Below are positions 1,334 through 54,127 of a stretch of 64,000 nt of DNA, piece after piece; position 1 is the first letter of the stretch, and every line of letters starts with the position of its first letter. The translations under genes were made by a program, and so were the position numbers. The notes beneath the pieces are model-generated. The model saw nothing but the letters and a program-made list of their open reading frames with translations. It was not told where the DNA came from and did not search any database. This stretch comes from Streptacidiphilus rugosus AM-16 (lineage in GTDB: Bacteria; Actinomycetota; Actinomycetes; Streptomycetales; Streptomycetaceae), in assembly GCF_000744655.1 (NCBI RefSeq), contig NZ_JQMJ01000004.1, positions 372,001-436,000 on the forward strand. Direction: 5' to 3'.

Positions 1334-1347
1334 GGTCCCAACCGGCC
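1334..1347. promoter_or_regulatory. Weak DosR/OsdR-like box between OsmC and DUF1876 genes
   Basis: GGTCCCAACCGGCC reads on the other strand as GGCC-GGTT-GGGACC, close to the GGRCC-N4-GGYCC pattern repeated through the window. It lies 50 bp upstream of the OsmC start and 260 bp before the DUF1876 start. The 322-bp gap otherwise holds no credible gene. Confidence 0.35.
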
Positions 1348-1606
1348 ACGGGTCGGCCCAGAGCCGTCAGGGCCCTTCACCGACCGCCGACCGGCCCCAT
1401 CACCGGACGGGGACGGGCGGTCACCGGCCGTACAGGGAGCACGGGCGACCGCCCTGGGTGCCGGCAGAACCCGCCCGCGTCCGGGCCCGGTCGGCAGGTC
1501 GGGCCGAGGGCACGCGGGTAGCGTGGAAGGCATCTGCAGGACACCGCTCCCAGCGGCCCGACCAAGGCGGCGCACCGGCGGCGACCACACGATGGGAAAC
1601 CCTGCC

Positions 1607-1888
1607 ATGACATCCCCGACCACACCCGCACCGCTCAGCGCCAAGCGCTGGAACCTCAGCCTCGACCTCTTCGAGGAGGGCGACGAGACCAAGGCCCACG
1701 CCGTGCTGGAGACCCAGGAACGCACCCTAGAGGGCCGGGGCTCGGCGCACCGCAATCCCCACGACGCCTCGATCCCGGAGATCGGCGACGAGTACGCGGC
1801 CGGCCGGGCCCTGATCGAACTCGGCAGGCAGCTCCTGCGCGCCGGGGAGACCGACGCCGCCGCGGAGTCGGACGGCCGCTTCGGCTGA
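1607..1888 (+). CDS. DUF1876 domain protein (copy 1)
   Basis: A 93-residue protein with the DUF1876 pattern: KRWNLSLDLFEEGDETKAHAVL, then a basic linker, then IPEIGDEYAAGRALIELGRQLL. The family is a small double-stranded-RNA-binding-like fold common in actinobacteria; its function is not established. ATG at 1607 is preferred because the family starts shortly before the KRW motif; an in-frame ATG at 1592 is also possible. Two paralogues lie at 17910-18176 and 43788-44078, each beside stress genes. The gene is followed 112 bp later by the PAS-GAF regulator on the same strand. Confidence 0.8.
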   Translation: MTSPTTPAPLSAKRWNLSLDLFEEGDETKAHAVLETQERTLEGRGSAHRNPHDASIPEIGDEYAAGRALIELGRQLLRAGETDAAAESDGRFG

Positions 1889-2000
1889 CCGCGGTGTCAG
1901 CCGCTGAGGTGGCCGGATCCCCGGTCCCGCGCTTGGATCGAGGTGGCGGCACCCGCCGCGCCCCCGTCGCCCCCGTCGCCCCCGCGGAGTCGTCCCCCTC

Positions 2001-4088
2001 GTGACCGATCCCGTCCCCCAGGAGTCCGGCTCTCCCGCCGAGCGCGTGGGCGAGGCGGTCCTGCACGCGCTGTTCACCCAGTCGCCGACGAGCCTGTACG
2101 TGTTCGACGGGGAGCTGCGCCTGGTGCGGGTCAACTCCGCCGCCCGGTTCTTCCGCGAGGTCGCGGACCAGGAGCTGCTCGGCCGGTCGCTGCGCCAGAT
2201 CCTGCCCGTCTTCGACGTCGCCGACGCCGGACGTCTGGAGCAGATCGCGCGGCGGGTCCTGGAGACGGGGCAACCCGTGAACGGTCTCCGGATCCGGCTG
2301 CGCGGCCGCAGCGACCCGCCGGCCGAGGTGCTGACCTCGGCGGCGCTGTTTCGCCTGCACGACGAGGACGGCGCGGTGCTGGGCGTCTGCGCCACACTCA
2401 CCGACATCACCGCGCAGGTGCGGGCCGAGGAAGGCCTGCGCCTGCTCAACGTGGCGGCCACGCGCCTCGGGTCGACGCTCGACATGTTCCGCATCGCCGC
2501 GGAGTTCTGCGACCTCGCAGTCCCGCAGTTCGCCGACTCGGTGGTCGTCGACCTGTACGACAGCGTCCTTCGCGGCCGCGCGCCCGCCGTCGACTCGGCC
2601 GAGCGTGGAGCGGCCGTGCGGCGGGCCGGACTGCTCTCGGTCACCGGGGGCCGGGCGCACGACGATCCTCCCGTCGGCGAGCTGGTCACCTACCCGGGCG
2701 ACTCGCCGCAGCACCGGGCGCTGGTCACGTGGACCACCCACCTGCTCGACGACGTCGACCCCGCCGTGTCCGGGGCGCGGTCCGTGCTCGCGGTCCCCGT
2801 TCGGGCCCGCGGGGTCGTCCTGGGCCTCGCCTGTTTCCTCCGGCGGCAGAACCCCCTGCCTTTCGACCAGGACGACCGGAGGCTGGCCGAACAGCTGACG
2901 GCCCACGCGGCCCTCTGCCTCGACAACGCCCGCCTCTACGCGCGGGAACGTTCGGCCGCCCGGGTCATGAAGGGCAGGGGCAGCCATCCGGACACGCCCG
3001 CGACGGTCGCAGTCGAGCTGGCCGGAAGCTACCGGCCGGCCGGTGACGGCGGCTCCTGGTTCGACGTGATCCCGCTCTCCAGCGCCCGGGTCGCACTCGT
3101 CGCGGGCCGCACCCCACTGGGCTCGGCCGCCGGTCCCGCGGCGATGTGCGAAGTGCGCGCGGCCGTCGAGGCGCTGTCCGACCTCGACCTGCCGCCCGAG
3201 GAGATCCTGGAACGGCTGCACGACCTGGCGGGAGGGTCGCGGCCCGACCTCGCGGACCCCGGGCGTCGCCCAGGTGACGCCGCGGGGAACGACACCGAGG
3301 CCGCGACCTGCCTCTACCTGGTCTACGACCCGGTGACCCTGACCTGCACCGCCGCGAGCGCCGGACATCCCTCCCCGGTCCTCCGGTTCCCCGACGGGAC
3401 CGTGGAGATGCTCGACGTCCCCTCCGGGCCGGCACTGGGCTGCGGGCCGCCCGGGTTCCGGGCCGTCCGGCGCACCCTGCCGGCGGCCACCACCGTGCTG
3501 ATCCACAACACCCCGCTGTCGCAGACACCCACGACGCAGGGGACCGAAGACCTGTTCGGCGAACTGCTCGGAGCATCCGACGCCTCGGGGGCCGACGACC
3601 TCCAGGCACGGTGCGACGGGCTCGCGGCCGCCCTGGCAGCCCGGCTGCCGACCCAGGACGTCCTCCTGGTGCTCGCCCGCACCCGCGTGCTCGGCGCGGA
3701 CCGCACCGCCTCATGGACGCTGCCCAACGCCCCCGAGTCCGTCTCCCGGGCACGCCGCCTCGCGACCGGCCGACTCGCCTCGTGGGGACTCGGCGGTGAA
3801 CTGGCCGAGAACACGGCCCTGGTCGTCAGCGAGCTGGTGACCAACGTCGTGCGGTACGCCGAAGGGCCCGTCCGGCTGGGACTCGTCCTGGCCGACACCC
3901 TGTTCTGCGAGGTTTCCGACGACAGCAGCACCGCCCCGCACCTGCGCCGGGCCCTGGACCAGGACGAGAACGGGCGCGGGCTCTTCATCACCGCCCAGCT
4001 GACCCAACGTTGGGGTGTGCGCAGGGACGGCCGCGGCAAGACCATCTGGACGGAGCAGCGGATCACCCCCGAGGACCGGTCCGGCTGA
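2001..4088 (+). CDS. PAS-GAF-PPM phosphatase-HATPase regulator with a degenerate phosphatase domain
   Basis: A 695-residue cytoplasmic regulator. Order: PAS fold (about 20-140), GAF (about 150-315), PPM/SpoIIE-type phosphatase fold (about 335-560), and an anti-sigma-type HATPase (about 570-690). The ATPase keeps ELVTNVVRYAE, the SDDSSTAPHLRRA motif and GRGLF, so ATP binding and partner-switching kinase activity look intact. The phosphatase does not: the metal-binding GGDW is GGSW (about 350), the usual GDVxGHG is AGRTPLGS (about 368), and the TDGL(V/I)E block is NTPLSQ (about 502). It is therefore probably a pseudophosphatase that senses through PAS/GAF and acts through the kinase domain on an anti-anti-sigma partner not in this window. 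GTG start at 2001; the ribosome site is weak and distant. Confidence 0.85.
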   Translation: MTDPVPQESGSPAERVGEAVLHALFTQSPTSLYVFDGELRLVRVNSAARFFREVADQELLGRSLRQILPVFDVADAGRLEQIARRVLETGQPVNGLRIRLRGRSDPPAEVLTSAALFRLHDEDGAVLGVCATLTDITAQVRAEEGLRLLNVAATRLGSTLDMFRIAAEFCDLAVPQFADSVVVDLYDSVLRGRAPAVDSAERGAAVRRAGLLSVTGGRAHDDPPVGELVTYPGDSPQHRALVTWTTHLLDDVDPAVSGARSVLAVPVRARGVVLGLACFLRRQNPLPFDQDDRRLAEQLTAHAALCLDNARLYARERSAARVMKGRGSHPDTPATVAVELAGSYRPAGDGGSWFDVIPLSSARVALVAGRTPLGSAAGPAAMCEVRAAVEALSDLDLPPEEILERLHDLAGGSRPDLADPGRRPGDAAGNDTEAATCLYLVYDPVTLTCTAASAGHPSPVLRFPDGTVEMLDVPSGPALGCGPPGFRAVRRTLPAATTVLIHNTPLSQTPTTQGTEDLFGELLGASDASGADDLQARCDGLAAALAARLPTQDVLLVLARTRVLGADRTASWTLPNAPESVSRARRLATGRLASWGLGGELAENTALVVSELVTNVVRYAEGPVRLGLVLADTLFCEVSDDSSTAPHLRRALDQDENGRGLFITAQLTQRWGVRRDGRGKTIWTEQRITPEDRSG

Positions 4089-4127
4089 CCTCCCCCGGGG
4101 TTCGCAGGCGCCGCCCGCCGCACGTGG

Positions 4128-5995: not shown

Positions 5996-7090
5996 TCACG
6001 CCGCCCGTCCAGGTGAACGCTCGTGCAGCAATGCGCCGATCCCGTCCATCAGCGGCAGCTCCTCGCGGCGGACGGCGACGAGTTCGCCGCCCTCACCGAC
6101 GAGCGCCCGCAGCAGCGCGGCGTCCGCCGGGGCCGACCAGCACGCCGAGGCACGCAGTGGCTCCAGCTCCTCACGGGCCACGGCGAGCTGCCGGGTCACC
6201 GCGCCCACCCAGAGTCGTTCGCGGTCCAGCCGGGTCGGGGTGTCGACGATCAGCGCGGCCACCGCGGCCCGGCGCAGCGCCTGCGCCGTCGCGTCGAGCC
6301 CCTCGACGGCTGCCCCGTTCCTGGCACGTTCCTCGAGAAACCCGTCCACGTGACGCCGGTCCCCGGCGCTGAGCCGTCCCCCGACCAGGTACTCGAGCTC
6401 GCCTTCCAACAGCAACCGCCCGGGCGACGCCGGGGTCGTCACCGCGTCGATGCGCACGACGCGCTCGCGGTCGTGCTCCGGCAGCGACTCGAGCAGCACG
6501 GAGCCGGCCCATCGGTCGCCTGCCAGGACGACCACCTCGGTCCGGTTGCGCTCGGCGGTTGCCACGAGCTCGTCGGCCAGGGCCCTGGCCGCCTGACGCC
6601 ACTCCCCGGCCGGCACGTGCCGGACGTCCGGCTCCGGCGGCGCGACGCGAATATGGGGCCACCGACCGCTCTGCGTCTCGGCGATCAGCCGTGACATGCC
6701 CCCGGGTTCGTGCACGCGGCGCAGTTGGATCGCAGTGCAGGCGATGTCGGGAGCGCGCTGGAGCGCGAGCGGCATCGCGTCCGGCACGAACGCGACCGCG
6801 GCCCGGTCCTCTCCCGGCGCCTGGGACAGGGGTTCGGCCAGTGCCAGCCTGCCGTGGGCGGCGAACAGGGCCAGGCCTCTGCCGGACACGTCGGAGTCAT
6901 CCTGTGGCACGGCGTGCGCCAGTGCTCCCATGGTGGCCACGTCGGCGCCCTCGGCGACGAGTCGCTCTCGCAGGCGCTCCCACCCGGCGAAAGGTGTCCC
7001 TTGTTCGTCCCCGTCCCCGGTCGCCTCGAGGTAGGCGCTGGCGAAGGGCCCGGGACGGGCGTAGAGCGGACGGAGGAATGAGAGGTCCAC
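5996..7090 (-). CDS. Rv2629-like protein (bacterial archaeo-eukaryotic release factor family)
   Basis: A 364-residue soluble protein starting with GTG at 7090, supported by AAGGAGG six bases upstream; the opening VDLSFLRPLYARPGPFASAYL is the typical start of the Rv2629/baeRF family. The body has the eRF1-like central and C-terminal layout: a strand-rich domain, then EVVVLAGDRWAGSVLLESLP, and a final domain around VERL-type helices. Mycobacterium Rv2629 is a DosR-regulon member, and the family has been linked to ribosome-associated roles under hypoxia, but no reaction is assigned. A candidate stress box (7161-7175) lies 71 bp upstream of the start. Confidence 0.75.
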   Translation of the reverse strand: MDLSFLRPLYARPGPFASAYLEATGDGDEQGTPFAGWERLRERLVAEGADVATMGALAHAVPQDDSDVSGRGLALFAAHGRLALAEPLSQAPGEDRAAVAFVPDAMPLALQRAPDIACTAIQLRRVHEPGGMSRLIAETQSGRWPHIRVAPPEPDVRHVPAGEWRQAARALADELVATAERNRTEVVVLAGDRWAGSVLLESLPEHDRERVVRIDAVTTPASPGRLLLEGELEYLVGGRLSAGDRRHVDGFLEERARNGAAVEGLDATAQALRRAAVAALIVDTPTRLDRERLWVGAVTRQLAVAREELEPLRASACWSAPADAALLRALVGEGGELVAVRREELPLMDGIGALLHERSPGRAA

Positions 7091-7160
7091 GTCGCGCCTC
7101 CTTGTTCCGACGCGGGAACAGCCGTCTCCTCCCACGCTACGCGTCCTGTCCGCCACGGGG

Positions 7161-7175
7161 AGGGCCGTTCGGGCC
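7161..7175. promoter_or_regulatory. DosR/OsdR-like box upstream of the Rv2629-like gene
   Basis: AGGGCC-GTTC-GGGCC matches the recurrent GGRCC-GNYC-GGYCC pattern with one change in the right half. It lies 71 bp upstream of the GTG start at 7090. Confidence 0.45.
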
Positions 7176-7268
7176 GAACCCGCGCCGAGCGCGCCGCTCC
7201 GGCTCCGAGCCCCGTCACCCCGGTCGAGTGGGACCTGCCGGTCCGGGAGCCGACCGCATGGCGGGGCT

Positions 7269-15854: not shown

Positions 15855-15861
15855 GGCCCGC

Positions 15862-16542
15862 TCACCCCTCGGTCCGGATCGTGGCACGCCGGGTGTCGTC
15901 CTCCTCGAAGCCGAGACGCGAGTCGAGCCCGACCACGCCGTCCGCCCCGCGGCACAGCCGCTCCACGACGGGCACCAGGCTGCGGCGCGGGACTCGGCCG
16001 TCCAAGGTCACCACGCCGTCGACGACGTGGACCTGGACCGCGCCGGGATCCAGCGACAAGGTGCTGCGCAGCACGTCGTACTCGATCTCCTCGCGGATCG
16101 CCCGGTCGCTGCGCAGGAAGAGGCGCAGCAGGTCACGGCGGCTGACCATGCCGATCACCCGGTCCGTGTCGTCCACCACGGGCAGGCGCTTGACGCGATG
16201 CTCCTTCATGGCACGCGCAGCCTCCACCACGCTCCAGCCGGAGTGCGCCGTGAAGACGGGCGTGGACATCACGTCCTGCGCGGTGGCCGCGGCCACGCCC
16301 GGCTCGAACTCGGACGCGGGACGGGGTGCGGGGCCGCGCCCTTCGGGGTCGGCCTGCGCGGCCTCCTTGCGCAGCAGGTCCGCCTCGGAGACCAGCCCGA
16401 TCAGGCGGCCGGAGCCGTCCAGCACCGGCACGGCGCTGATCTCCTGCTCGGCCAGGATGACGGCGATCTCCTTGAACGGCGTGTCGGCCTGAACGCTCGT
16501 CACGTCACGGGTCATCAGGTCATCGACGAAGCGGTGTCTCAT
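15862..16542 (-). CDS. CBS-BON protein (copy 1)
   Basis: A 226-residue protein. Two CBS domains (about 8-65 and 90-150) with VSEADLLRKEA and VSRRDLLRLFLRSD are followed by a BON domain (about 155-215) with VHVVDGVVTLDGRV. CBS pairs bind nucleotides; BON modules are thought to bind surfaces or phospholipids. ATG at 16542 has GAAGGAG upstream; GTG 16545 is an alternative. Three other CBS-BON proteins of the same length lie at 40437, 45291 and 53322, all in the island. It sits between the Hsp20 gene (39-bp gap) and the CBS gene (seven-base gap) in one apparent transcript. Confidence 0.88.
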   Translation of the reverse strand: MRHRFVDDLMTRDVTSVQADTPFKEIAVILAEQEISAVPVLDGSGRLIGLVSEADLLRKEAAQADPEGRGPAPRPASEFEPGVAAATAQDVMSTPVFTAHSGWSVVEAARAMKEHRVKRLPVVDDTDRVIGMVSRRDLLRLFLRSDRAIREEIEYDVLRSTLSLDPGAVQVHVVDGVVTLDGRVPRRSLVPVVERLCRGADGVVGLDSRLGFEEDDTRRATIRTEG

Positions 16543-16581
16543 CACGCTCTCCTTCCCGAACCGGGTTGCCCGGCAGTCGGA

Positions 16582-17007
16582 TCAGCCGCCCTTGGAGACC
16601 TTCACGCGGTGCGGCTCGGACGCGGTGGCGACCGGCATGGGCGCCTTCACCGTGAGCACGCCCTTGTCGTAGGTGGCGCTGATGTCCTTCTCGCTCACCC
16701 CGGCCGGCAGGCGCACGCTGCGGGTGAAGGAGCCGTAGCGGAACTCCGACCGCTGCTTGTCCTTCGTCTCCTCGGTGCGCTCGGCGTGCACCATGAGGAC
16801 ACCGTCGTCGACGGTGATCTCGATGTCCCTGTCCGGGTCGATGCCGGGCAGCTCGGCCTTGACCGTGTAGACGCCTTCCTCCTCGCACTCCTCGACGCGG
16901 ATCATGTGCTCGCCGTCGTTCAGGCGCAGGTCGAGGGGGAAGTCCTCGAACCAGTCGGAGAAGGGCGGCCACCAGCGCGGGCGGCGTTCCAGTTGACGTG
17001 AGGCCAT
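16582..17007 (-). CDS. Hsp20 / alpha-crystallin small heat-shock protein
   Basis: A 141-residue chaperone. The N-terminal tail has the aromatic run RWWPPFSDWFEDFP, then the alpha-crystallin domain (about 40-130) with YTVKAELPGIDPDRDIEITV, FRYGSFTRSVRLPAGV and the strand YDKGVLTVKAPMP. Such proteins hold unfolding proteins in a refoldable state without ATP. The match in context is to HspX/Acr, the best known DosR-regulon protein. ATG at 17007 fits an AGGAG eight bases upstream; GTG 17016 is less well placed. The best stress palindrome of the window (17118-17137) lies 111 bp upstream. First gene of a likely four-gene transcript with two CBS genes. Confidence 0.93.
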   Translation of the reverse strand: MASRQLERRPRWWPPFSDWFEDFPLDLRLNDGEHMIRVEECEEEGVYTVKAELPGIDPDRDIEITVDDGVLMVHAERTEETKDKQRSEFRYGSFTRSVRLPAGVSEKDISATYDKGVLTVKAPMPVATASEPHRVKVSKGG

Positions 17008-17117
17008 CTCGACCACTCCTCGGCTTCCTCACCGACCCTGGACCGGGGCCGGTATGTCCGTTGTGTCCAGCCTCGGAGGGAGACGCCGCAGCCGCACCGG
17101 CCGGGCGGGCCATACCG

Positions 17118-17137
17118 CTGGGGCCGTTGGTCCCCAG
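17118..17137. promoter_or_regulatory. DosR/OsdR-like box upstream of hsp20
   Basis: CTGGGGCC-GTTG-GTCCCCAG is the longest match to the recurrent palindrome: GGGCC-GTTG-GTCCC with flanks that also pair. It lies 111 bp upstream of the Hsp20 start and 150 bp upstream of the divergent small gene at 17287. Confidence 0.6.
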
Positions 17138-17909: not shown

Positions 17910-18176
17910 TCAGGCGGGCACCTGGCCGGCCGGCCCCGCCATGTGGGCGAAGTCGTGGGAGGCCATGTCGTGGATCCGCTGGGCGAGATCCTCCAGCGCC
18001 CGGCTCACGGCCAGTTCGTCACCGATCTCCGCCACCGGCCGGTCGACGGGGTTACGGCGTGCCACTCCCCGGCCCACTGCGGCCATCCGTCCGTCGTCCG
18101 TCATCACGGCCCGGGCCACGGTACGGTCCGGCCCCTCGTCGATGAACACCGTCACGTTCCATTCCTTGGCGCTCAC
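17910..18176 (-). CDS. DUF1876 domain protein (copy 2)
   Basis: An 88-residue protein starting with GTG at 18176 (VSAKEWNVTVFIDEG). It shows the DUF1876 pattern, with ARRNPVDRPVAEIGDELAVSRALEDLAQRI as the signature half. The upstream ribosome site is weak. It is divergent from the site-2 protease gene; the 214-bp gap between them contains two stress palindromes. The 134 bp between its stop and the gene at 17515-17775 hold short GGGACGTCG repeats (about 17850-17886), a possible terminator or repeat. Confidence 0.75.
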   Translation of the reverse strand: MSAKEWNVTVFIDEGPDRTVARAVMTDDGRMAAVGRGVARRNPVDRPVAEIGDELAVSRALEDLAQRIHDMASHDFAHMAGPAGQVPA

Positions 18177-18286: not shown

Positions 18287-18301
18287 GGGGCCGGTCGGCC
18301 C
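18287..18301. promoter_or_regulatory. DosR/OsdR-like box 2 between DUF1876 and S2P genes
   Basis: GGGGCC-GGTC-GGCCC: both halves match. Its centre is 20 bp, about two helical turns, from box 1, a spacing compatible with paired binding. Confidence 0.55.
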
Positions 18302-18390
18302 AGCAGCGTGGGCGGATCAGCCCTGCTGCCCCGGCCGTTCGACGCGGACCGTTGGAGACAGGACCACCCCTCGCCGACGACGGGACAACC

Positions 18391-19583: not shown

Positions 19584-19605
19584 ACGGTCAGAAGTAGCTG
19601 ACCGT
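19584..19605. terminator. Bidirectional hairpin between S2P and deacetylase genes
   Basis: ACGGTCAG and CTGACCGT form a perfect eight-pair stem around AAGTAG. It overlaps the last codons of the deacetylase gene, so it could end transcription from either side. Confidence 0.55.
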
Positions 19606-20910: not shown

Positions 20911-20927
20911 TGGACCGGTCGGCCCTT
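20911..20927. promoter_or_regulatory. DosR/OsdR-like box 1, deacetylase/SHOCT divergent promoter
   Basis: TGGACC-GGTC-GGCCCTT matches both half-sites of the recurrent palindrome, 100 bp upstream of the deacetylase start. Confidence 0.55.
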
Positions 20928-20933: not shown

Positions 20934-20950
20934 GGGACCGCTCGGACCCA
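20934..20950. promoter_or_regulatory. DosR/OsdR-like box 2, deacetylase/SHOCT divergent promoter
   Basis: GGGACC-GCTC-GGACCCA, 23 bp on from box 1 and 86 bp upstream of the SHOCT gene. The paired arrangement repeats that seen at 18267-18301. Confidence 0.55.
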
Positions 20951-21035
20951 GGCAGCGGCGCGGGATCGGAGGAGCCTGGAAGCAGCGCGGCGCACCGTCG
21001 TGACCGCGCACGGGTGCGGGAGGTGAGCGGCCGTG

Positions 21036-23438: not shown

Positions 23439-26366
<2,928 letters not shown>

Positions 26367-26461: not shown

Positions 26462-26479
26462 CAGGGCCGTTCAGCCCCG
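26462..26479. promoter_or_regulatory. DosR/OsdR-like box upstream of the P-type ATPase
   Basis: CAGGGCC-GTTC-AGCCCCG. The 16-base core CAGGGCCGTTCAGCCC is repeated exactly at 34119-34134 upstream of the USP pair, strong evidence of a shared site. It lies 96 bp upstream of the ATPase start. The rest of the 276-bp gap holds nothing recognisable. Confidence 0.6.
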
Positions 26480-29994: not shown

Positions 29995-30121
29995 CCGACG
30001 CCTGGTCGTCCGAAACCCGTCTCGTCTCGTCCTGCGGGCGCGGGAAGGGCCCTCCGGCTGCCGGGGCGGAAGTCGGGGTCCGCCCCGGGCCGGAAGGCCC
30101 TGGCTCATGGCCGGTCGCGGG

Positions 30122-34052: not shown

Positions 34053-34118
34053 CGCGGACTCCCTTCGCACGGGCCCGGTCGGCCCTCTTCGAGAGTGCCG
34101 TCGGGCGGCCGGCCGCCC

Positions 34119-34135
34119 CAGGGCCGTTCAGCCCG
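34119..34135. promoter_or_regulatory. DosR/OsdR-like box upstream of USP-2
   Basis: CAGGGCC-GTTC-AGCCCG; the 16-base core equals that at 26462. It is 67 bp upstream of the USP-2 start and 56 bp upstream of the divergent phosphoglucomutase gene. Confidence 0.6.
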
Positions 34136-40436: not shown

Positions 40437-41102
40437 TCAACGGTTGACGAGTGTCTGGCCGGTGACGTCCCACTGGACGTCGACCACGCCCTCCACCGCC
40501 CGCGCGAGCCGCGCGGCGACGGGAACCAGGGTCGTGTCGGCGAGGCGCCCGGTGAGCATCACCACGCCGTCCTCGACGTGGACCACCACACCGCTCGCGT
40601 CCTCGCCGAAGAGGTAGGCGACGACCTCGCGGCGGACCTCCTCGGCGATCTCCTCGTCCGGCCGCAGGAAGACGGTGAGCAGGTCGGCGCGGCTGACGAT
40701 GCCGGCCAGCATGCCCCACTCGTCCACCACCGGCAGGCGCTTGACGTGGTGACGGGCCAGCTGCCTGGCCGCCTGCGCGAGCGTCGCGTCGGCGCGCACC
40801 GTCACCGCGGGCGCGGTCATCAACTCGGCCGCGGTGAGGGCCCCGGCCTTGGCCATGTCCCCCAGTCGGCGCAGTTGTTCGGGTCGGCTCGGGTCCGCGT
40901 CCCGGAACTCCTCCTTCGGCAGCAGGTCCGCCTCGGAGACCACGCCGACGACGCGGCCCTCCCCCGCGGTCACCGGCACCGCGCTGACCTTCCACTGGGC
41001 CATCAGGGCGACGATGTCCTTGAAGGGCGCCTCCTGGCCGACGGAGACGACCGTCTCCGTCATCACGTCGCTGACGATGTGCGGACTACCGCTGCCGTAC
41101 AT
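40437..41102 (-). CDS. CBS-BON protein (copy 2)
   Basis: A 221-residue protein: two CBS domains (VSEADLLPKEEF and HHVKRLPVVDEWGMLAGIVSRADLLTVFL) then a BON domain (VVVHVEDGVVMLTGRLADTTLVP). ATG at 41102 has GGGAGG upstream. Its start overlaps the end of the DUF1918 gene by 17 bases, indicating co-translation. Same architecture as the copies at 15862, 45291 and 53322. Confidence 0.88.
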   Translation of the reverse strand: MYGSGSPHIVSDVMTETVVSVGQEAPFKDIVALMAQWKVSAVPVTAGEGRVVGVVSEADLLPKEEFRDADPSRPEQLRRLGDMAKAGALTAAELMTAPAVTVRADATLAQAARQLARHHVKRLPVVDEWGMLAGIVSRADLLTVFLRPDEEIAEEVRREVVAYLFGEDASGVVVHVEDGVVMLTGRLADTTLVPVAARLARAVEGVVDVQWDVTGQTLVNR

Positions 41103-42063: not shown

Positions 42064-42918
42064 TCACCAGTGCGGGACGACCGCGACGGGGCAACGCGCG
42101 TGATGGAGGGCCGCGTGCGCGACGGGCCCGAGGGCGGAGACGGGGCGGTGCCTGCGGCGCCCGACGACCAGGAGTGAGGCCTTCTCGGCCTCCTCGACCA
42201 GGACCGTCGCCGGATCCCCGGACAGCTCCGCGGTCGTCACGTCCACGTCGGGGAAGCCGTGGTGAGCGGCTGTCACCGCCTCGTGGAGTGCGCGGGCCTG
42301 GTGGTTCTCGAGCTCTCTGCGTTCGGCTTCGCCGGGTTGCGCCGGACCCGCACCCCAGAGCAGCGGCGGCTGCCAGGCGTGCACGGCCCTCAGCACGACT
42401 CCGTGCTCCTGCGCGCTACGGAGTGCGAACTCAAGGACGGGCCGGCAGTCCCAGGCGGGGTCGACTCCGACCACGACCCGGTAACCGGGTCCCGCCGCGG
42501 CGGCGCGCCCCGGCACGAGGACGACGGGCCGCTCGGCGCGAGCGGCCACCGACTGGGCGACCGAACCCAGCATCAGTGCGCCGAAGCCGCCGCTCCCGCG
42601 CGTCCCGAGCACCAGCGTCCCGGACTCGTCGGCGGCGCGCAGCAGGGTCAGGTCCACCGGCCCGGCCGTCGGCTCGATCTCGACGTGCAGCCCGGGATGG
42701 GTCCGGCGCAGGTCGGCGGCGAGCCGGGTCATCGCGTGGAGGGCCTCCACCTCGGCCTCCTCGACACGTTCGTCCCCCGGACGGATCCACAGTCCGGTCG
42801 GCCGTACGTGGATCAGCCGCACGGGCCGGCGGGTCGCGGCGGCCTCCCGCCCGGCCCAGTCCGCCGCGCCGACGCTCGCGTCGGAGCCGTCGACCCCGAC
42901 GATCAGTGGTGTGGTCAT
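42064..42918 (-). CDS. Universal stress protein, two USP domains (USP-4)
   Basis: A 284-residue tandem USP beginning PLIVGVDGSDASVGAADWAGREA. First-domain loop LVLGTRGSGGFGALMLGSVAQSV is canonical for ATP; the second, LVVGRRRHRPVSALGPVAHAALHHARC, is not. ATG at 42918 has AAGGAA upstream. First gene of a likely operon USP-4, HTH/flavin-fold, DUF1918, CBS-BON, nitroreductase, USP-3. The 428-bp region upstream contains two stress boxes. Confidence 0.9.
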   Translation of the reverse strand: MTTPLIVGVDGSDASVGAADWAGREAAATRRPVRLIHVRPTGLWIRPGDERVEEAEVEALHAMTRLAADLRRTHPGLHVEIEPTAGPVDLTLLRAADESGTLVLGTRGSGGFGALMLGSVAQSVAARAERPVVLVPGRAAAAGPGYRVVVGVDPAWDCRPVLEFALRSAQEHGVVLRAVHAWQPPLLWGAGPAQPGEAERRELENHQARALHEAVTAAHHGFPDVDVTTAELSGDPATVLVEEAEKASLLVVGRRRHRPVSALGPVAHAALHHARCPVAVVPHW

Positions 42919-43035: not shown

Positions 43036-43052
43036 AGGGCCGACCGGTCCCC
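43036..43052. promoter_or_regulatory. DosR/OsdR-like box 1 upstream of the USP-4 operon
   Basis: AGGGCC-GACC-GGTCCCC matches both halves of the recurrent palindrome; 118 bp upstream of USP-4. Confidence 0.55.
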
Positions 43053-43114
43053 ACTCCGGTCCCCTGCGAGCCTGGGGCACAGGTCGGGGCTGGGCCTCTC
43101 GGTCCCTTGCGACC

Positions 43115-43129
43115 GGCCCGAAGGGCCCT
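43115..43129. promoter_or_regulatory. DosR/OsdR-like box 2 upstream of the USP-4 operon
   Basis: Read on the minus strand, AGGGCC-CTTC-GGGCC; 197 bp upstream of USP-4 and 218 bp before the small plus-strand gene. Confidence 0.45.
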
Positions 43130-43787: not shown

Positions 43788-44078
43788 TCATGAGGGAACG
43801 TCGACACCGTTGCCCGCGGAGTCGGTGTTGCCTGCCCTCAGCAACTGGTATCCGAGGTCGAGCAGGGCGCGTCCGGCGGCGAACTCGTCGCCGATCTCGG
43901 GCACCGGGCGGTCCACCGGATCGCGCATCGAGGCCGCGCTTGCCTGGAGACGGTTGTCGCCGGTGTCCAGCACGGCGTGCACCCGGGTGACGTCACCCTC
44001 CTCGAAGAGGTCGAGCCGGACGGTCCAGGTCCTGGTGTGGTAGTCGTCCGACGCGGGTCTGCGCGGTTCGGTGTTCAT
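43788..44078 (-). CDS. DUF1876 domain protein (copy 3)
   Basis: A 96-residue protein with RTWTVRLDLFEEGDVTRVHAVLD and DRPVPEIGDEFAAGRALLDLGYQLL. Very like copy 1 at 1607. AAGGAGGA precedes the ATG at 44078. It follows the USP-5 gene by 33 bp in the same direction, a two-gene transcript. Confidence 0.82.
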   Translation of the reverse strand: MNTEPRRPASDDYHTRTWTVRLDLFEEGDVTRVHAVLDTGDNRLQASAASMRDPVDRPVPEIGDEFAAGRALLDLGYQLLRAGNTDSAGNGVDVPS

Positions 44079-45167: not shown

Positions 45168-45185
45168 CAGGGACCGTTCGGCCCC
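45168..45185. promoter_or_regulatory. DosR/OsdR-like box 1 between USP-5 and the hydrogenase operon
   Basis: CAGGGACC-GTTC-GGCCCC, an excellent match with the GGGAC half found in mycobacterial sites. It is 154 bp from USP-5 and 106 bp from the CBS-BON start. Confidence 0.6.
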
Positions 45186-45220
45186 TCGCCCCGCCTCCCG
45201 CGCGGGCGGAGGGTGGAGGA

Positions 45221-45290: not shown

Positions 45291-46004
45291 ATGCAGCACC
45301 GCACCGTCCGTGACGTGATGAGCCACCAGGTGACGACCGTCCGCCGCGACACCCCGTTCAAGGCCGTGGCCGAGCTGCTGGCCGAGCACGACATCAGCGC
45401 CGTGCCGGTGGTCGACGACACCGGCCGCGTCCTCGGCGTCGTCTCCGAGGCCGACCTGCTGCGCAAGGAGTCCGGACAGCGCGACCCCGACGGCCACACC
45501 CCCTCCGTGTGGCTGAGCCCGAGCAACCGCAAGCGGGCCCGCGCCGAGAACGCGGACGGACTGATGTCCCGCACCGTCTTCACGGCCCGCCCGGAGTGGT
45601 CCGTGGTCGAGGCGGCCAGGATGATGGACCGCCACCATGTGAAGCGCCTGCCCGTCGTCGACGAGACCGACCACCTGGTCGGCATCGTCAGCCGCAGCGA
45701 CCTGCTGCGCGTCTTCCTGCGCAACGACCGGGCCATCCGCGGCGAGATCGTCTCCGAGGTGCTGCAGCACATCATGATGATCGATCCGGCCGCGATCCAG
45801 GTCCAGGTCGAGGACGGCGTCGTGCGGATGCGCGGACAGCTGGAGCGCAGGAGCATGATTCCGATCGTGGAGCGGCTGTGCCGGTCCGTCGACGGCGTGG
45901 TCGCCCTGCATGCGAACCTCACCTTCGCCTTCGACGACACCCACACCGATCTCGAGCCCCCCGTGGTCCGCGGTGTCATGCAGCCGCAGCGGCACCATGG
46001 CTGA
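45291..46004 (+). CDS. CBS-BON protein (copy 3), first gene of the hydrogenase operon
   Basis: A 237-residue protein: CBS pair (TVRDVMSHQVTTVRRDTPFKAV, VSEADLLRKESG; HHVKRLPVVDETDHLVGIVSRSDLLRVFL) then BON (IQVQVEDGVVRMRGQLERRSMIP). Close in sequence to copy 1. AAGGAG lies seven bases before ATG 45291. It ends 26 bp before the hydrogenase beta subunit gene with no visible terminator, so it probably heads that operon and may signal adenylate state there (inference). Confidence 0.88.
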   Translation: MQHRTVRDVMSHQVTTVRRDTPFKAVAELLAEHDISAVPVVDDTGRVLGVVSEADLLRKESGQRDPDGHTPSVWLSPSNRKRARAENADGLMSRTVFTARPEWSVVEAARMMDRHHVKRLPVVDETDHLVGIVSRSDLLRVFLRNDRAIRGEIVSEVLQHIMMIDPAAIQVQVEDGVVRMRGQLERRSMIPIVERLCRSVDGVVALHANLTFAFDDTHTDLEPPVVRGVMQPQRHHG

Positions 46005-46030
46005 TCCGCTCGTGCAGGAAGGCCGGCACC

Positions 46031-47197
46031 ATGGAACCGCAGAGCCCGACCGTCACCGCCGGGCAGCCGCGTGAACTGGCCCAGGACGACCTCCAGGCGC
46101 TCTTCGACGCGCTGACCGCGCGCGGCTGGACGGTGGTCGGGCCGACCGAACGCGACGGCGCCGTGGTCCTGGCCGAGCTCACCCGCGCGGACCAACTCCC
46201 TCACGGAGTGGGCGTCCGCCTCGCCCCGGGCGGCTACCGGCTCCGACAGCGCGAGGACCGTGCGGCGTTCGCCCACTCGGCGGGTCCGCAGTCCTGGAAG
46301 AACTTCCTGCACCCCGAGCGGGCCCGGCTCTGGCAGGCGGACCGGGACGAGGAGGGCGGGGTGACCTTCACGCCCGACACCGAGGAGACCGCGCCGGCTC
46401 CCCGCTACGCGCTGCTCGGGGTGCACCCCTGCGACCTGGCGGCCATCTCCCGGCTGGACCGGGTGCTGACGGGGGGCGCCTTCCGCGACCCGGTCTACGG
46501 CCCGCGGCGGGACGCGGCCTTCGTCATCGCCGTGGCCTGCACCGATCCTGGCGAGCTGTGCTTCTGCGCCTCCGTCGGCACGGGCCCCGGCCTGCGCGAG
46601 GACGCGCCCTGCGACCTGGCGGTCCACGAGATCGCGGACCGGGACGGCGTGCGGCTGATGATCTCGGCGCACAGCGGCCGCGGAGCCGAGCTGCTCTCCG
46701 ACCCGCGGCTGCCCTTGCGCGAACCCCATCCGGAGCTGCCTGAGCTGGCCAGGCGTCGGACCGAGGACGCCGCGCAGCGCATGGGCCGTGAGCTGGAGAC
46801 GGAGGGCCTGCGCGACGTCCTCGCGGGAACCCTCGACTCGTCGGTCTGGGACGAGGTCGCCTCCCGCTGTCTGACCTGCGGGAACTGCACGATGGTGTGC
46901 CCCACCTGCTTCTGCACCACCACCGAGGACACCACCGACCTGACGGGCGAGCACGCGGAGCGGTGGCGTCGTTGGGACTCCTGTTTCGACCTCGACTTCT
47001 CCTACGTCCACGGGGGTTCGGTCCGGACCTCCGGCAGGAGCCGCTACCGCCAGTGGCTCACTCACAAGCTCGGTACCTGGCACGACCAGTTCGGCAGCAG
47101 CGGCTGCGTCGGCTGTGGCCGGTGCATCGTCTGGTGTCCGGTCGGCATCGACCTGACGGTCGAGGCCGCCCGCCTGCGCGAGGAGGCCGGACCATGA
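46031..47197 (+). CDS. hydB: Group 3b [NiFe] hydrogenase/sulfhydrogenase beta subunit (4Fe-4S)
   Basis: A 388-residue cytoplasmic electron-transfer subunit. The N-terminal part has the HydB pattern ([38 protein letters not shown]). Two ferredoxin-like clusters lie near the end: [15 protein letters not shown] (about 281-295) and [14 protein letters not shown] (about 359-372). It carries electrons between the small subunit and the flavin subunit. ATG at 46031 has AGGAAGG upstream. Its stop overlaps the gamma-subunit start (ATGA). Confidence 0.93.
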
Positions 47198-48081
47198 CCA
47201 GCGCCGCCACCGTGCCCGGTCGCGCCGCCGACCCGGCGACCCCGCTCCCCTACCTGGTGCGCCACCGGCTCCGCGAGACCGACGACACCGTGACCCTCGA
47301 ACTGGTCCCGCTGGACGAGGCGCTGCCGCGCTTCCGGCCCGGACAGTTCTCCATGCTCTACGCCTTCGGCGTCGGCGAGATCCCGGTCTCGGTGAGCGGC
47401 ATCGCGCCGGACGACGCGCTCGCCCACACGATCCGCGCCGTCGGCAAGGTCAGCGAGGCCTTGTGCCGGCTGCGGCCGGGCGAGGTGGTCGGCGTGTGCG
47501 GGCCGTTCGGCAACGACTGGGCGCTCGGAGTCGGGCCTTCCGAGGACGACGACCGCGTGACGGCCCTCGGCACCGACCCGGGCGAGGACCTGGTCGTGCT
47601 GGGCGGCGGTCTGGGGCTGTCCCCGCTGCGCCCCGTGGTCCGGCTGGCTTTGTCCCGGCCCGGCGCCTACGGCCGCCTGACCGTGCTGGTCGGTGCCCGC
47701 AGCCCCCGCGAGCTCGTGCACCGCGCCGATCTGACGCAGTGGTGCGCCCTCGGCGACGTGAGGGTCACCGTCGATCACCCCGAAGCCGGCTGGTCAGGCC
47801 CCGTCGGGCAGGTCACCGATCAACTGCGGCACGCCGTTTTCCGCCCCGAACGGACCACCGCTTTCGTCTGCGGCCCCGAACCGATGATGCGGGCGAGCGC
47901 GGAGGCGCTGATGCGGCGCGGCGTCCCCCCCGAACGCATCCGCCTCTCCCTGGAGCGCAACATGCGCTGCGCCACCGCCTGGTGCGGCCACTGCCAACTC
48001 GGCCGGGTCCTTGTCTGCCGCGACGGACCGGTCTTCACCTGGCGGCAGGCCGCCGACCTGCTGGCGGTCCACGAACTGTGA
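47194..48081 (+). CDS. hydG: Hydrogenase gamma subunit (FAD/NAD(P)-binding oxidoreductase)
   Basis: A 295-residue ferredoxin-reductase-like protein. FAD site in [23 protein letters not shown], nucleotide site in [26 protein letters not shown], and a C-terminal 2Fe-2S set of cysteines in [25 protein letters not shown]. It should pass electrons to or from NAD(P). Start ATG 47194 overlaps the hydB stop. Confidence 0.93.
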
Positions 48082-48098
48082 AAGGAGATCCAGCCGCC

Positions 48099-48896
48099 GT
48101 GTCCACTCCGCGCCCCAGACTCGCCGTCTGGAAGTTCTCCTCCTGCGACGGCTGCCAGCTGACCCTGCTCGACTGCGAGGAGGACCTGCTCCCGCTGGCC
48201 GACCGGGTCGATGTGGCGTACTTCCTGGAGGCCTCACGGGCCGCCGGTCCCGGCCCCTACGACCTGTCCCTGGTCGAGGGATCGATCGCCGCACAGGCCG
48301 ACGTCGAACGGATCCATGAGATCCGCGCGCAGTCCAGGGCGCTGGTGACCATCGGCGCCTGTGCGACCGCGGGCGGCATCCAGGCGCTGCGCAACGGACG
48401 CGACCTCGACGAGCTGCTTTCGACCGTCTACGCCGATCCCGCGTACATCGACACCCTGGCGACCTCCACGCCGATCGCCGCGCACGTCCCCGTCGACTTC
48501 GAGCTGCGCGGCTGTCCCATCGACAAACGGCAGTTGCTGGAGGTGGTCTCCGCCTTCCTGGCCGGTCGCAAGCCCGACATCCCTGACCACAGCGTGTGCT
48601 TCGAGTGCAAGCGGCGTGGCGTCACCTGCGTGACCGTCGCCCACGGCACGCCGTGTCTCGGCCCGGTCACCCAGGCCGGCTGCGGCGCCCTCTGCCCGGC
48701 GTTCGCACGCGGCTGCTTCGGCTGCTTCGGGCCCAGCGCAAGTCCGAACACCCGCGCGCTGCTGCCGCTGTTGCACGCCGACGGCCTGCCCGAGCACGAC
48801 GTGGTCCGGCTCTACCGCACCTTCAACGCCGAGGCCCCCGCCTTCCGCGACGCCGCCGGGGACGCCCTGAGTCCGGATGAGGAAGACCGCCGATGA
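48099..48896 (+). CDS. hydD: [NiFe] hydrogenase small (delta) subunit
   Basis: A 265-residue subunit. The proximal 4Fe-4S cluster ligands begin in [16 protein letters not shown] (residues about 13-25), with further ligands in [11 protein letters not shown] and [11 protein letters not shown]; more cysteines follow in [11 protein letters not shown] and [18 protein letters not shown]. No twin-arginine signal, so it is cytoplasmic as in group 3b. GTG at 48099 has AAAGGAG 11 bases upstream. Stop overlaps the large-subunit start (ATGA). Confidence 0.93.
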
Positions 48897-50209
48897 CCCA
48901 CCGCAGCCATCGTCTGCTCAGCGTCCGCTCGCTCGCCCGCGTCGAGGGCGAGGGGGCGATGCACATCCGGGTACGCGACGGCGAGGTGGAGAGCGTGAAG
49001 CTCAGCATCTACGAGCCGCCGCGGTTCTTCGAGGCGCTGCTGCGCGGCCGCCGCTACGACGAGCCGGTGGACATCACCGCGCGGATCTGCGGTATCTGTC
49101 CGGTCGCCTACCAGATGACGGCCTGTCAGGCCGTGGAGGACGCCTGCGGCGTGACCGTCGACGGTCAGCTCGCCGCACTGCGCCGGCTGCTCTACTGCGG
49201 CGAGTGGATCGAGTCCCACACCCTGCACATCTACCTGTTGCACGCCCCTGACTTCCTGGGACTGCCCGACGCGCTCTCGCTCGCCCGCACCGACCGGGCA
49301 CTGGTCGAACGCGGGTTGCGACTCAAGCAGGCGGGCAACCAGATCATGGAGGTTCTCGGCGGGCGCGCCGTCCACCCGGTCAACGTGCGGCTGGGCGGGT
49401 TCCACCGTCTGCCCGAGGCCGCTGAACTGGACCGGCTCGCCCGGCTGTTGCGCACCGCTCGCCGCGACGCGGAGGAAACAGTGGCCTGGACGGCCACCCT
49501 GGACTTCCCCGACCTGCACGTCCGGCACGCGCTGCTGGCGCTTCGGGCCGCCGACTCCTACCCGCTCGACGGCGGCGTCCCGACCCTGCACGGCGCCCTT
49601 CCCGACGCCCCGGCGCTGACCTCGTTCCCGGTCGGGGAGTTCGAGCGGCACGTGGTCGAGGCTCAGGTGCCGCATTCGACCGCGCTGCAGGCGAGCGCGG
49701 ACGGCCTGCGCCACCTGACCGGCCCCCTGGCCCGATGGCGCACCGCCGCCGACCGGTTGCCGGTCGAGCTCAGGGACCTCGGCGCCGCGGCGGGCCTGGG
49801 CGAGGTGTGCGACAACCCGTTCCGCAGCATCGTGATCCGGGCGATCGAGGTGCTGTGGGCGGTGCGCGAGGCGCAGCGACTGCTGGAAGCCTACGAGCCG
49901 CCGCCCCGGCCGGCCGTACCCGTCCCGCCCCGCGCGGGGGTCGGCCACGCCGCCACCGAGGCGCCACGCGGGCTGCTCTACCACCGCTACGAGCTGGCGG
50001 CCGACGGCACGGTCGTCACGGCGGACATCGTTCCGCCGACCGCACAGAACCAGGCGGCGATCGAGGCGGACCTGCGCGAATTCGTGCAGCAGCGCCTCCA
50101 CCTGGACGACGCGGAGCTCACCCGGCAGTGCGAACAGGCGATCCGCAACTACGATCCGTGCATCTCCTGCGCCACGCACTTCCTCGACCTGACCGTGGAG
50201 AGAGGGTGA
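48893..50209 (+). CDS. hydA: [NiFe] hydrogenase large (alpha) subunit
   Basis: A 438-residue catalytic subunit. L1 motif RICGICPV (about 64-71) and L2 motif [13 protein letters not shown] (about 421-433) supply the four nickel-binding cysteines. Family features RLARVEGEG-type opening ([15 protein letters not shown]) and [10 protein letters not shown] are present. A short tail follows the L2 histidine (FLDLTVERG), which fits a processing site for the adjacent protease. Group 3b enzymes couple NAD(P)H to H2; in M. smegmatis the related Hyd3 is DosR-induced in hypoxia. Confidence 0.94.
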
Positions 50210-50216
50210 CCCGGCC

Positions 50217-50693
50217 GTGAGCGGCACCGTCGTGATCACAATCGGCAACGAGTACCGTCAGGACGACGGCGCAGGTCTCGCCGTGCTGCGGCTGCTCGAC
50301 GCGCGGGACCTGCCCGCCGACCGCCTGGCGCACACGGACGGGGAGGCCACCCGGCTGCTCGGCCTGTGGCAGGGGCGGGATCTGGCGGTGGTCGTCGACA
50401 CGGTCCACGCCCATCCGGGCGAACCGGGCCGGATCCACCGACTGGACCTGGCCGGGGCCTCACTCGTCCAGGGCGGTGCGAACACCCACGGGCTGGGCCT
50501 GGGTGAGGCCGTGGAGCTCAGCAGGGTGCTCGACCTGCTGCCGGAGCGCCTGGTCGTGGTCGGCATCGAGGGCGAGCACTTCGACTGGGGCGAGGGACTG
50601 TCCCCCGCTGTGGCCGCGGCAGTTCCGAGAGCGGCCGAACTGGTCCGCGAAGTCTGCCGCACGCGGGCGCGAGGGGACCGAGCCGCGCGCTGA
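50217..50693 (+). CDS. Hydrogenase maturation protease
   Basis: A 158-residue HycI/HyaD-type endopeptidase: GNEYRQDDGAGLAVL (usual GNxxRGDDGxG; here Q replaces G), later VVVDTVHAHPGEPG and VVGIEGEHFDWGEGLSP. It removes the C-terminal tail of the large subunit after nickel is inserted. GTG at 50217 lies seven bases after hydA's stop. No hypABCDEF accessory genes are seen in the window. Confidence 0.88.
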   Translation: MSGTVVITIGNEYRQDDGAGLAVLRLLDARDLPADRLAHTDGEATRLLGLWQGRDLAVVVDTVHAHPGEPGRIHRLDLAGASLVQGGANTHGLGLGEAVELSRVLDLLPERLVVVGIEGEHFDWGEGLSPAVAAAVPRAAELVREVCRTRARGDRAAR

Positions 50694-51502: not shown

Positions 51503-51507
51503 ACACC

Positions 51508-51553: not shown

Positions 51554-51561
51554 GCCGGACG

Positions 51562-52605: not shown

Positions 52606-52651
52606 GTCCGATCACCCTTCGGTGCGTGTGCGGTAGGGGTGTGGTGGAGGG

Positions 52652-53260: not shown

Positions 53261-53321
53261 GATCGGTGGTCCCTTCTCGATGATCGCAGATGACGCAGGA
53301 CAGGTGCGGTGCAGGTGCGGT

Positions 53322-54020
53322 TCAGTACAGGGGCCCGAGCGGGAGCGGGGCGGCCGGCGGACGCGGCGCCGAGTCGAGGGCGAAGGCCACGTCCACCACC
53401 CCGTCCACGCCGCGCACGGTGCGGGCGATCAGCGGAATGCGGGACGAGTCGGCGAGCGTGCCGCCGATCGCGGCGATGCCCTCGGTGACCGTCACGGTCA
53501 GCCGGGCGGCCTCGGCCGCGTGCAGTTCACGGGCCAGCGCCGCCCGGACGTCCTCGGCGAGCGCCGCGTCGTCGCGCAGGAACACCTTGAGCAGGTCGCC
53601 CCGGCTGACGATGCCGCGCAACCGTCCGCCCGCGTCGACCACGGGCAGGCGCTTGATGCCGCGCCGGCCGAGAAGCCGGGCGGCAGCGGCCAGGGTCTCG
53701 TCCGCCCCGACGGTGACCGCCGGTGCGGACATGAGGTCCTCGGCGACCAGCGCGGTGACCTTGCCGGCCTCGTCCGGTCGCAGCAGCGCCCGCCGCAGTC
53801 CGAGGCGCCGGTCGTGCTGGGCCTCCTTCGGCAGCAGATCCGCCTCCGACACCACACCCAGCACCCGACGGCGGCTGTCGAGGACCGGCAGCGCGCTGAC
53901 GCGGTGCTCGCTCATCAGCCGTACCAACTCCTTGAAGGGTGTCTCCCGCAGCACGCTCACGACGGGGTGGGACATGACGTCCCGCACGCAGCGCGACGGT
54001 GTGTCGTGGATCGCGGACAT
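53322..54020 (-). CDS. CBS-BON protein (copy 4)
   Basis: A 232-residue protein: CBS pair (CVRDVMSHPVVSVLRETPFKEL, VSEADLLPKEAQ; RGIKRLPVVDAGGRLRGIVSRGDLLKVFL) then BON (LTVTVTEGIAAIGGTLADSSRIP). Divergent from ppdK with 169 bp between and a perfect stress palindrome in the gap. Confidence 0.88.
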   Translation of the reverse strand: MSAIHDTPSRCVRDVMSHPVVSVLRETPFKELVRLMSEHRVSALPVLDSRRRVLGVVSEADLLPKEAQHDRRLGLRRALLRPDEAGKVTALVAEDLMSAPAVTVGADETLAAAARLLGRRGIKRLPVVDAGGRLRGIVSRGDLLKVFLRDDAALAEDVRAALARELHAAEAARLTVTVTEGIAAIGGTLADSSRIPLIARTVRGVDGVVDVAFALDSAPRPPAAPLPLGPLY

Positions 54021-54112
54021 CGCCGGACCTCCCTCGGGTCACGGTCCTCCTGGTTGCTTCCAGCGTTCTCCGGCGCGGGAGCGGGGTCTTGAGCCGGTAC
54101 GCCCCTGCGGCC

Positions 54113-54127
54113 GGGGCCGATCGGCCC
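54113..54127. promoter_or_regulatory. Perfect DosR/OsdR-like palindrome between CBS-BON and ppdK
   Basis: GGGGCC-GATC-GGCCC: the 14 bases GGGCCGATCGGCCC (54114-54127) are a perfect palindrome. It lies 63 bp upstream of ppdK and 93 bp upstream of the CBS-BON start. Confidence 0.6.

What the first reader, a model, noticed from the sequence alone, without database searches (positions are those of the whole stretch)
1334..54127. A recurrent GGRCC-GNYC-GGYCC palindrome marks a candidate dormancy regulon
The sequence shows at least twelve closely matching palindromes before stress genes: 7161, 17118, 18267, 18287, 20911, 20934, 26462, 27620, 34119, 43036, 43115, 45168 and 54113. The last is a perfect 14-bp palindrome and two sites (26462, 34119) share an exact 16-base core. 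All have two GG(G/A)CC half-sites around four bases. The mycobacterial DosR box GGGAC-TWWA-GTCCC has the same 5-4-5 layout. The sites are absent before the kinase, GH81, amylase and pullulanase genes. I infer that an OsdR/DosR-type regulator controls hsp20, CBS, USP, S2P, ATPase, PPDK and hydrogenase genes together.
Basis: partly seen in the sequence, partly recalled or inferred. Interest (0 to 1): 0.9.

Follow-up and report, generated by a model that had tools for sequence, protein, structure and literature searches.

The report
OsdR/DosR dormancy-regulon promoter boxes
A repeated 16-base palindrome in front of stress and low-oxygen genes in this Streptomyces-like bacterium matches the known binding site of the dormancy regulator OsdR/DosR, and its spacing to the likely promoters follows a simple rule.

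Summary
The palindrome is real and far above chance. It matches the published OsdR box of Streptomyces (AGGGCCGATCGGCCCT). A matrix built only from 26 published S. coelicolor sites finds 15 hits in the window (12 outside called genes), against 8 (3) in 400 kb of sampled background. Three are weak: 20934 fits as a secondary box, 18267 is ambiguous, 27620 is unsupported. Two strong sites (17178, 34071) were missed. The boxes form an island of about 145 kb; the window is its left part. An OsdR/DevR orthologue with its own boxes lies 66 kb past the window end; a DevS/DosT-like kinase lies inside the window. New detail: a -10-like hexamer starts 22/23 bp after the box (14 of 38 cases), or 44/45 bp after it (10 of 38), then usually with a weak second box in between. 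Loci of other genomes show the same. This fits DevR-type activation from a site overlapping -35, alone or with a tandem partner. A group-3b-like [NiFe]-hydrogenase operon carries the box here and in 7 of 12 relatives that have it (one more ambiguous), as in Mycobacterium smegmatis. Binding and expression are untested. New member of a known kind.

The parts
7161..7176 (-). OsdR box (14.7) before the baeRF/Rv2629-like gene 5996-7090(-); -10-like TAGCGT 21 bp after box (about 7134-7139)
   Evidence: gene (Rv2629 model below its cut-off)
17120..17135 (-). OsdR box (13.6) before hsp20 16582-17016(-); -10-like GAGGCT 45 bp after box
   Evidence: gene
18287..18302 (+). OsdR box (15.0) between Rv2632c-like 17910-18176(-) and M50+CBS protease 18391-19578(+)
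   Evidence: gene
18309..18324 (+). tandem secondary box (10.7) 22 bp after 18287; -10-like GACCGT 44 bp after the first box (about 18347-18352)
20911..20926 (+). OsdR box (13.0) between polysaccharide deacetylase/LGFP gene 19588-20811(-; -10-like at 24 bp) and SHOCT gene 21033-21311(+)
   Evidence: gene
20934..20949 (+). weak secondary box (4.5) 23 bp after 20911; -10-like GAGCCT 45 bp after the first box (about 20972-20977)
26463..26478 (-). OsdR box (16.0) before P-type cation ATPase 23439-26366(-); -10-like GACGCT 22 bp after box
   Evidence: gene
34071..34086 (-).
34120..34135 (-). OsdR box (14.5) before USP genes 32320-34052(-); -10-like CACTCT 22 bp after box
   Evidence: gene
43036..43051 (-). 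OsdR box (14.7) before USP 42064-42918(-); -10-like AACCCT 23 bp after box
   Evidence: gene
43114..43129 (.). weaker box (11.4), 78 bp from 43036
45170..45185 (+). OsdR box (14.1) before the CBS-BON + [NiFe]-hydrogenase genes; -10-like GAGGGT 23 bp after box (about 45209-45214)
45291..50693 (+). CBS-BON gene, hydrogenase beta, gamma, delta (small), alpha (large) subunits and HycI-type maturation protease
54113..54128 (.). best box of the window (20.4), shared by CBS-BON 53322-54020(-; -10-like at 45 bp) and PPDK 54190-56877(+; -10-like GAGAGT at 22 bp, about 54151-54156)
56887..58635 (-). DevS/DosT/OsdK-like histidine kinase (GAF-GAF-HisKA_3-HATPase); no box within 400 bp upstream

Best explanation
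The palindromes are binding sites for the OsdR/DevR (DosR) response regulator in the promoters of a dormancy/hypoxia regulon of a Streptacidiphilus-like actinomycete. Inferred mechanism: heme-GAF kinases (one in the window) sense low O2, NO or CO and phosphorylate the OsdR orthologue at C4:502495-503235; OsdR~P binds the 16-bp box and recruits RNA polymerase. The sequence suggests two promoter layouts. (a) A strong box whose centre lies about 30 bp upstream of the -10 hexamer, that is near -42, overlapping -35. (b) A strong box two helical turns further upstream (near -64), usually with a degenerate box near -42, filled by cooperative binding. Shown here: box identity, clustering, promoter position, spacing, homology of regulator and kinase, partial conservation. 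Inferred: phosphorylation, binding, direction of regulation, signal, and that the hexamers are real -10 elements.
For: Independent matrix and clustering; whole-genome pattern. OsdR orthologue; kinase with the DevS/DosT GAF domain. 64 of 79 osdR homologues with enough upstream sequence have a box >=12 within 450 bp. NANNNT at 22/23 bp in 14 of 38 island directions (1000 shuffles: mean 1.1, max 5) and at 44/45 in 10 of 38 (mean 1.1, max 5). Other genomes: 75 and 42 of 215 (200 shuffles: means 7.6 and 6.9, max 16 and 15), 33/34 only 4 (mean 7.3). Second box (score >0) at +21..23 in 27 of 39 of the 44/45 class against 5 of 75 of the 22/23 class. By eye the 54113 and 45170 boxes are the longest unbroken conserved blocks of their intergenic alignments. 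Hydrogenase box in own genome and 7 of 12 relatives with the gene, one more ambiguous; amylase control 0 of 30 loci. In S. lividans, PPDK, CBS, USP, nitroreductase genes of the OsdR island rise together with osdR (PMC6302529, passages and part of its Table 2).
Against: No binding, expression or start-site data for this organism. PPDK box in only 2 of 7 homologues of >=68% identity (own, G011) and 1 of 23 others. ATPase box in 3 of 9 homologues of >=60% and 3 of 19 others. 4 of 12 relatives with the hydrogenase lack a promoter box. 13 of 38 box-gene directions show no -10 at either spacing. The NANNNT motif was chosen after looking at the sequences; stricter motifs tried first gave only small peaks. 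3 of 9 island promoters of the 44/45 class show no second box above the random 95th percentile, and 12 of 39 in other genomes. The kinase gene has no box.
Confidence: 0.92

Rival explanations
1. The palindromes are generic GC-rich hairpins (terminators or composition artefacts) of a 73% GC genome.
For: G+C 72.7%; the consensus is not over-represented genome-wide against its backward control; the hit at 30086 lies just past the 3' end of the amylase gene and may be of this kind.
Against: 0 of 500 permuted palindromic matrices reach the island count and the reversed matrix gives 0 non-coding hits >=12; many sites stand at a fixed spacing to a -10-like hexamer, which pooled permuted palindromes do not (4 of 86 at 22/23, 2 of 86 at 44/45); conservation between species.
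Confidence: 0.03
2. The boxes are read mainly by another NarL-family regulator (for example the 65% identical paralogue at C3:342186), or by both.
For: The paralogue exists; one relative, S. neutrinimicus, has two close osdR homologues (L042, L043).
Against: The C4 gene sits inside the box island with two boxes upstream, and boxes stand before 64 of 79 homologues.
Confidence: 0.15
3. OsdR acts mainly as a repressor at some of these promoters (box blocking -35).
For: A box overlapping -35 is compatible with steric block (general knowledge).
Against: In S. coelicolor several usp genes and nar2 near osdR are down in the osdR mutant (PMC5069765, section 12); DevR target promoters have the proximal site overlapping -35 and are activated (PMC3029386, passages).
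Confidence: 0.07

Closest known systems
OsdKR regulon of Streptomyces coelicolor (PMC5069765)
   Same: Same box, same kind of island (USP, PPDK, nitroreductase, PNP-oxidase genes around osdR), box before osdR and PPDK, DevS-like kinase.
   Different: Here osdR and the kinase gene are about 72 kb apart, not in one operon. The island includes a [NiFe]-hydrogenase operon; the word hydrogenase does not occur in that paper's main text, nor do 'spacing' or 'transcription start'.
DevR/DosR regulon of Mycobacterium tuberculosis
   Same: Gene kinds (ctpF-like ATPase, hspX-like hsp20, Rv2629-like, Acg/Rv3131-type nitroreductase, USPs, CBS proteins; list in PMC4082495, passages); proximal site overlapping -35, closely packed cooperative sites (PMC3029386, passages).
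   Different: GC-richer half-sites (GGGCC against GGGAC as the finding quotes the DosR box); a hydrogenase operon and PPDK do not appear in the list seen.
DosR-linked Hyd3/Hyh hydrogenase of Mycobacterium smegmatis
   Same: Genes listed as beta-gamma-delta-alpha (msmeg_3931-3928) next to a DosR-like cluster, induced at low oxygen (PMC2799521, passages); named as dos-regulated (PMC8125079, PMC5430705, passages; that Hyd3 and Hyh are one enzyme is recalled).
   Different: Here preceded by a CBS-BON gene; regulation only predicted.

Membership tests
OsdR/DevR regulon | Sites match the published OsdR matrix | tested here: met
   10 of 13 listed sites >=11.4 with a matrix from 26 published sites
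OsdR/DevR regulon | Sites enriched in promoters and clustered around osdR | tested here: met
OsdR/DevR regulon | OsdR/DevR orthologue in the genome, with its own box | tested here: met
OsdR/DevR regulon | DNA-contact residues Lys179, Lys182, Asn183 and phosphoacceptor Asp54 kept | tested here: met
   KTVKN and the VLD aspartate align to DevR 3c3w; residue roles from PMC4082495 and PMC3029386 passages; the mapping of residue numbers onto the alignment is mine
OsdR/DevR regulon | Regulator binds the boxes; genes respond to hypoxia | not testable with these tools
   needs EMSA and RNA-seq
DevS/DosT/OsdK kinases | GAF-GAF-HisKA_3-HATPase with DevS/DosT-type heme GAF | tested here: met
   the histidine aligned in DevS is kept, its role as heme ligand is recalled; heme binding itself not tested
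S. coelicolor osdR-osdK arrangement | Regulator and kinase in one operon | tested here: not met
   about 72 kb apart here; a kinase of 84-86% identity lies within about 1.4 kb of osdR in L040, L042, L045
Group 3b-type [NiFe]-hydrogenase | Closest to cytosolic sulfhydrogenase-type enzymes, four subunits in order | tested here: inconclusive
   closest solved: cytosolic NiFe-hydrogenase and sulfhydrogenase 1 alpha, E 1e-68; NCBIfam sulfhydrogenase models lead for beta, delta and alpha but all stay below their cut-offs; no group tree built

The most novel reading that the evidence does not exclude
Streptomycete OsdR promoters follow a two-state code set by helical phase: a strong box near -42, or a strong box near -64 with a degenerate box near -42. 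The second class would need cooperative filling and so respond at higher OsdR~P. A fermentative H2 module (hydrogenase, PPDK, and further along the island phosphoketolase and a CoA ligase) is wired into it, the hydrogenase link being kept in two families of the order.
Probability: 0.55. Interest if true: 0.5.

Novelty: new member of a known kind. Interest (0 to 1): 0.4.

Why it matters
It turns an eye-found palindrome into a tested regulon prediction and gives a simple position rule (22/23 or 44/45 bp to the -10) that may let OsdR targets and their start sites be predicted in other streptomycetes. It also suggests that some streptomycete hypoxia regulons, like that of M. smegmatis, include a hydrogenase, so that these aerobes may make or use H2 when oxygen runs out.

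Tried and rejected
Chance palindromes in GC-rich DNA: rejected by permuted and reversed matrices. Strict -10 motifs TANNNT and NANNNTGG gave only small peaks (3 of 38 at 22, 6 of 38 at 45); NANNNT was then used and checked on other promoters. Permuted palindromes in the other genomes gave 86 rows at a lower threshold (11), 4 at 22/23 and 2 at 44/45. Whole-genome search with 2 mismatches: its list was incomplete (C4:816389 and C4:2304264, one mismatch each and found, were not listed), so I did not count from it; its totals, 688 per strand against 837 for the control, again show no genome-wide excess. 27620 lies between a DUF308 gene and the 3' end of an IS605-type TnpB gene (27804-29012) and scores 3.9; I take it as chance or part of that element. 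Hits inside called genes (23870, 38596, 63342) were set aside as likely chance. One search held a wrongly given third sequence and was replaced. One search misplaced two loci at contig ends (L161, L191); one search rescored them. Paper searches: the listings (34 and 35 capped at 20 of 36 and 20 of 28 papers) showed me no paper on a [NiFe]-hydrogenase under OsdR in streptomycetes; PMC6302529, which holds both words, uses 'hydrogenase' only for NADH hydrogenase. One search found 0 papers with Streptacidiphilus, DevR and dormancy together.
Full report
Observation. The listed sequences are present. To avoid circularity I built a symmetric 16-column matrix from 26 sites printed in Table 1 of the S. 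coelicolor OsdR paper (PMC5069765: abstract, sections 7 and 12, and passages seen), whose consensus is AGGGCCGATCGGCCCT. In this window 10 of the 13 listed sites score 11.4 to 20.4 and 3 score below 6 (18267, 20934, 27620); 17178 (17.0) and 34071 (14.8) had been missed.

Chance. At >=12 bits the window has 15 hits (12 outside called genes), C4:436-536k 18 (16), C4:272-372k 2 (1), C4:536-596k 2 (1), and 20 background stretches of 20 kb 8 (3). With 500 column-permuted palindromic matrices none reached the island's 28 non-coding hits (mean 0.7), and the reversed matrix gave 0. The exact pattern GGRCCGNYCGGYCC stands at 57 places in the 9.0-Mb genome, counted by hand from the 78 rows, 18 of them in 145 kb. 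The whole-genome total is below the backward control, so clustering and promoter position carry the signal, not abundance. The matrix was run on 724 kb of this genome, not on all of it. Genes were called with my own G+C-frame script, so starts may be off.

Island and regulator. The boxes run from about C4:379k to 523k; the window (C4:372001-436000) is the left part. A NarL-type response regulator at C4:502495-503235 has DevR 3c3w as best solved match (E 3e-79) and keeps the KTVKN segment and the receiver Asp and Lys in the alignment. It has boxes at 502323 and 502367. The 80 kept homologues, 71-90% identical, are from Streptacidiphilus, Kitasatospora, Streptomyces, Peterkaempfera and one Actinomadura (480 candidates, capped at 80); 64 of the 79 with enough upstream sequence carry a box >=12 within 450 bp. 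The window's kinase matches the GAF domain 2vzw (E 1e-48; labelled only 'probable histidine kinase', DosT is my recollection) and DevS GAF and kinase domains. Kinases of 84-86% identity lie close to osdR in L040, L042 and L045; here the two are about 72 kb apart, so they appear to have been separated. Other box-bearing genes of the island include a flavohaemoglobin-like gene, a beta-CASP protein, phosphoketolase, a CoA-ligase/ATP-grasp protein, and more CBS and USP genes.

Targets in the window. Boxes lie before an Rv2629-like gene (NCBIfam model below its cut-off, 138 against 320 bits), hsp20, an M50+CBS protease, a SHOCT gene and a polysaccharide deacetylase, a P-type ATPase, USP genes, CBS-BON plus hydrogenase genes, and CBS-BON / PPDK. 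Rv2629, ctpF (Rv1997), hspX (Rv2031c), Rv2032, Rv2623, Rv2625c, Rv2626c and Rv3131 are in the DosR list of PMC4082495 (passages).

Promoter architecture. For 38 box-to-gene directions in the 324-kb region (score >=12, gene start within 250 bp; boxes inside called genes dropped, except 500493, kept because it stands before a USP gene) a NANNNT hexamer starts 22 or 23 bp after the box in 14 (1000 shuffles: mean 1.1, max 5) and 44 or 45 bp after in 10 (mean 1.1, max 5); 13 of 38 have none within one base of either spacing. The motif was suggested by the osdR promoters of other genomes (58 occurrences at 22/23 downstream of 80 boxes >=14). In 215 further directions from those loci, the osdR promoters themselves excluded (score >=13), the counts are 75 (200 shuffles: mean 7.6, max 16) and 42 (mean 6.9, max 15), and at 33/34 only 4 (mean 7.3); these loci come from related genomes, so rows are not fully independent. 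In the 44/45 class 27 of 39 have a second, weak box at +21 to +23; in the 22/23 class 5 of 75. In the island 6 of 9 of the 44/45 class exceed the random 95th percentile there. So the place near -42 is usually box-like, strong or weak, and 20934 is rescued as a secondary box. DevR target promoters of M. tuberculosis are described as having closely packed sites, the proximal one overlapping -35, with cooperative filling (PMC3029386, passages). The OsdR paper's main text lacks 'spacing' and 'transcription start', and shows 'cooperative' only in its references.

Conservation. Between this genome and G011 the 54113 box is an unbroken conserved block, followed by a conserved block at the -10 place; the hydrogenase box and a GTGGA block at its -10 place are kept in G011 and G002. 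The hydrogenase beta gene occurs in 13 of 41 genomes, own included. Of the 12 others, 7 have a box >=12 in front of the genes (G002, G011, G012, G014, G028, G034, G038), G015 has one 143 bp before what looks like the first gene of the operon but also 101 bp before a divergent gene, and G019, G020, G023, G039 have none there (longer flanks were fetched for 11 of the 12, G038 lies at a contig end). Against my reading: PPDK has the box in 2 of 7 homologues of >=68% identity and 1 of 23 others (30 of 55 matches scored); the ATPase in 3 of 9 homologues of >=60% and 3 of 19 others (28 of 33 matches scored). Control amylase: 0 of 30 loci at >=10 bits.

Other support. In S. lividans, genes of the OsdR island (PPDK, CBS-type, USP, nitroreductase, nitrate reductase) are co-expressed with osdR in a protein-producing strain (PMC6302529, passages and part of Table 2); no [NiFe]-hydrogenase is among the rows I saw.

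Verdict. An OsdR/DevR regulon island in a Streptacidiphilus-like genome: a new member of a known kind. The added value is the spacing rule and the hydrogenase link, for which M. smegmatis Hyd3/Hyh is the precedent (PMC2799521, PMC8125079, PMC5430705, passages).

Noticed in passing
   Followed up: partly
L009:11583-18862 (C4:507583-514862): Phosphoketolase, nitroreductase-like, acetyltransferase/CoA-ligase (ATP-grasp) and USP genes, with strong boxes before the first and third: a possible fermentative module of the same island.
   Followed up: partly
G000 C3:342186-342836, C3:542828-544585, C1:406215-407318: An OsdR paralogue (65%), a second DevS-like kinase (42%) and a DevS-like GAF protein apparently lacking the kinase part (64%) elsewhere in the genome.
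   Followed up: partly
1607-1888, 17910-18176, 43788-44078: Three Rv2632c-like small proteins (PF08962) in one window.
   Followed up: no
15862-16545, 40437-41102, 45291-46004, 53322-54020: Four CBS-CBS-BON proteins in one window, two of them directly behind OsdR boxes.
   Followed up: no
2001-4088: PAS-GAF-SpoIIE phosphatase with a histidine-kinase-like ATPase domain near the left edge of the island.
   Followed up: no
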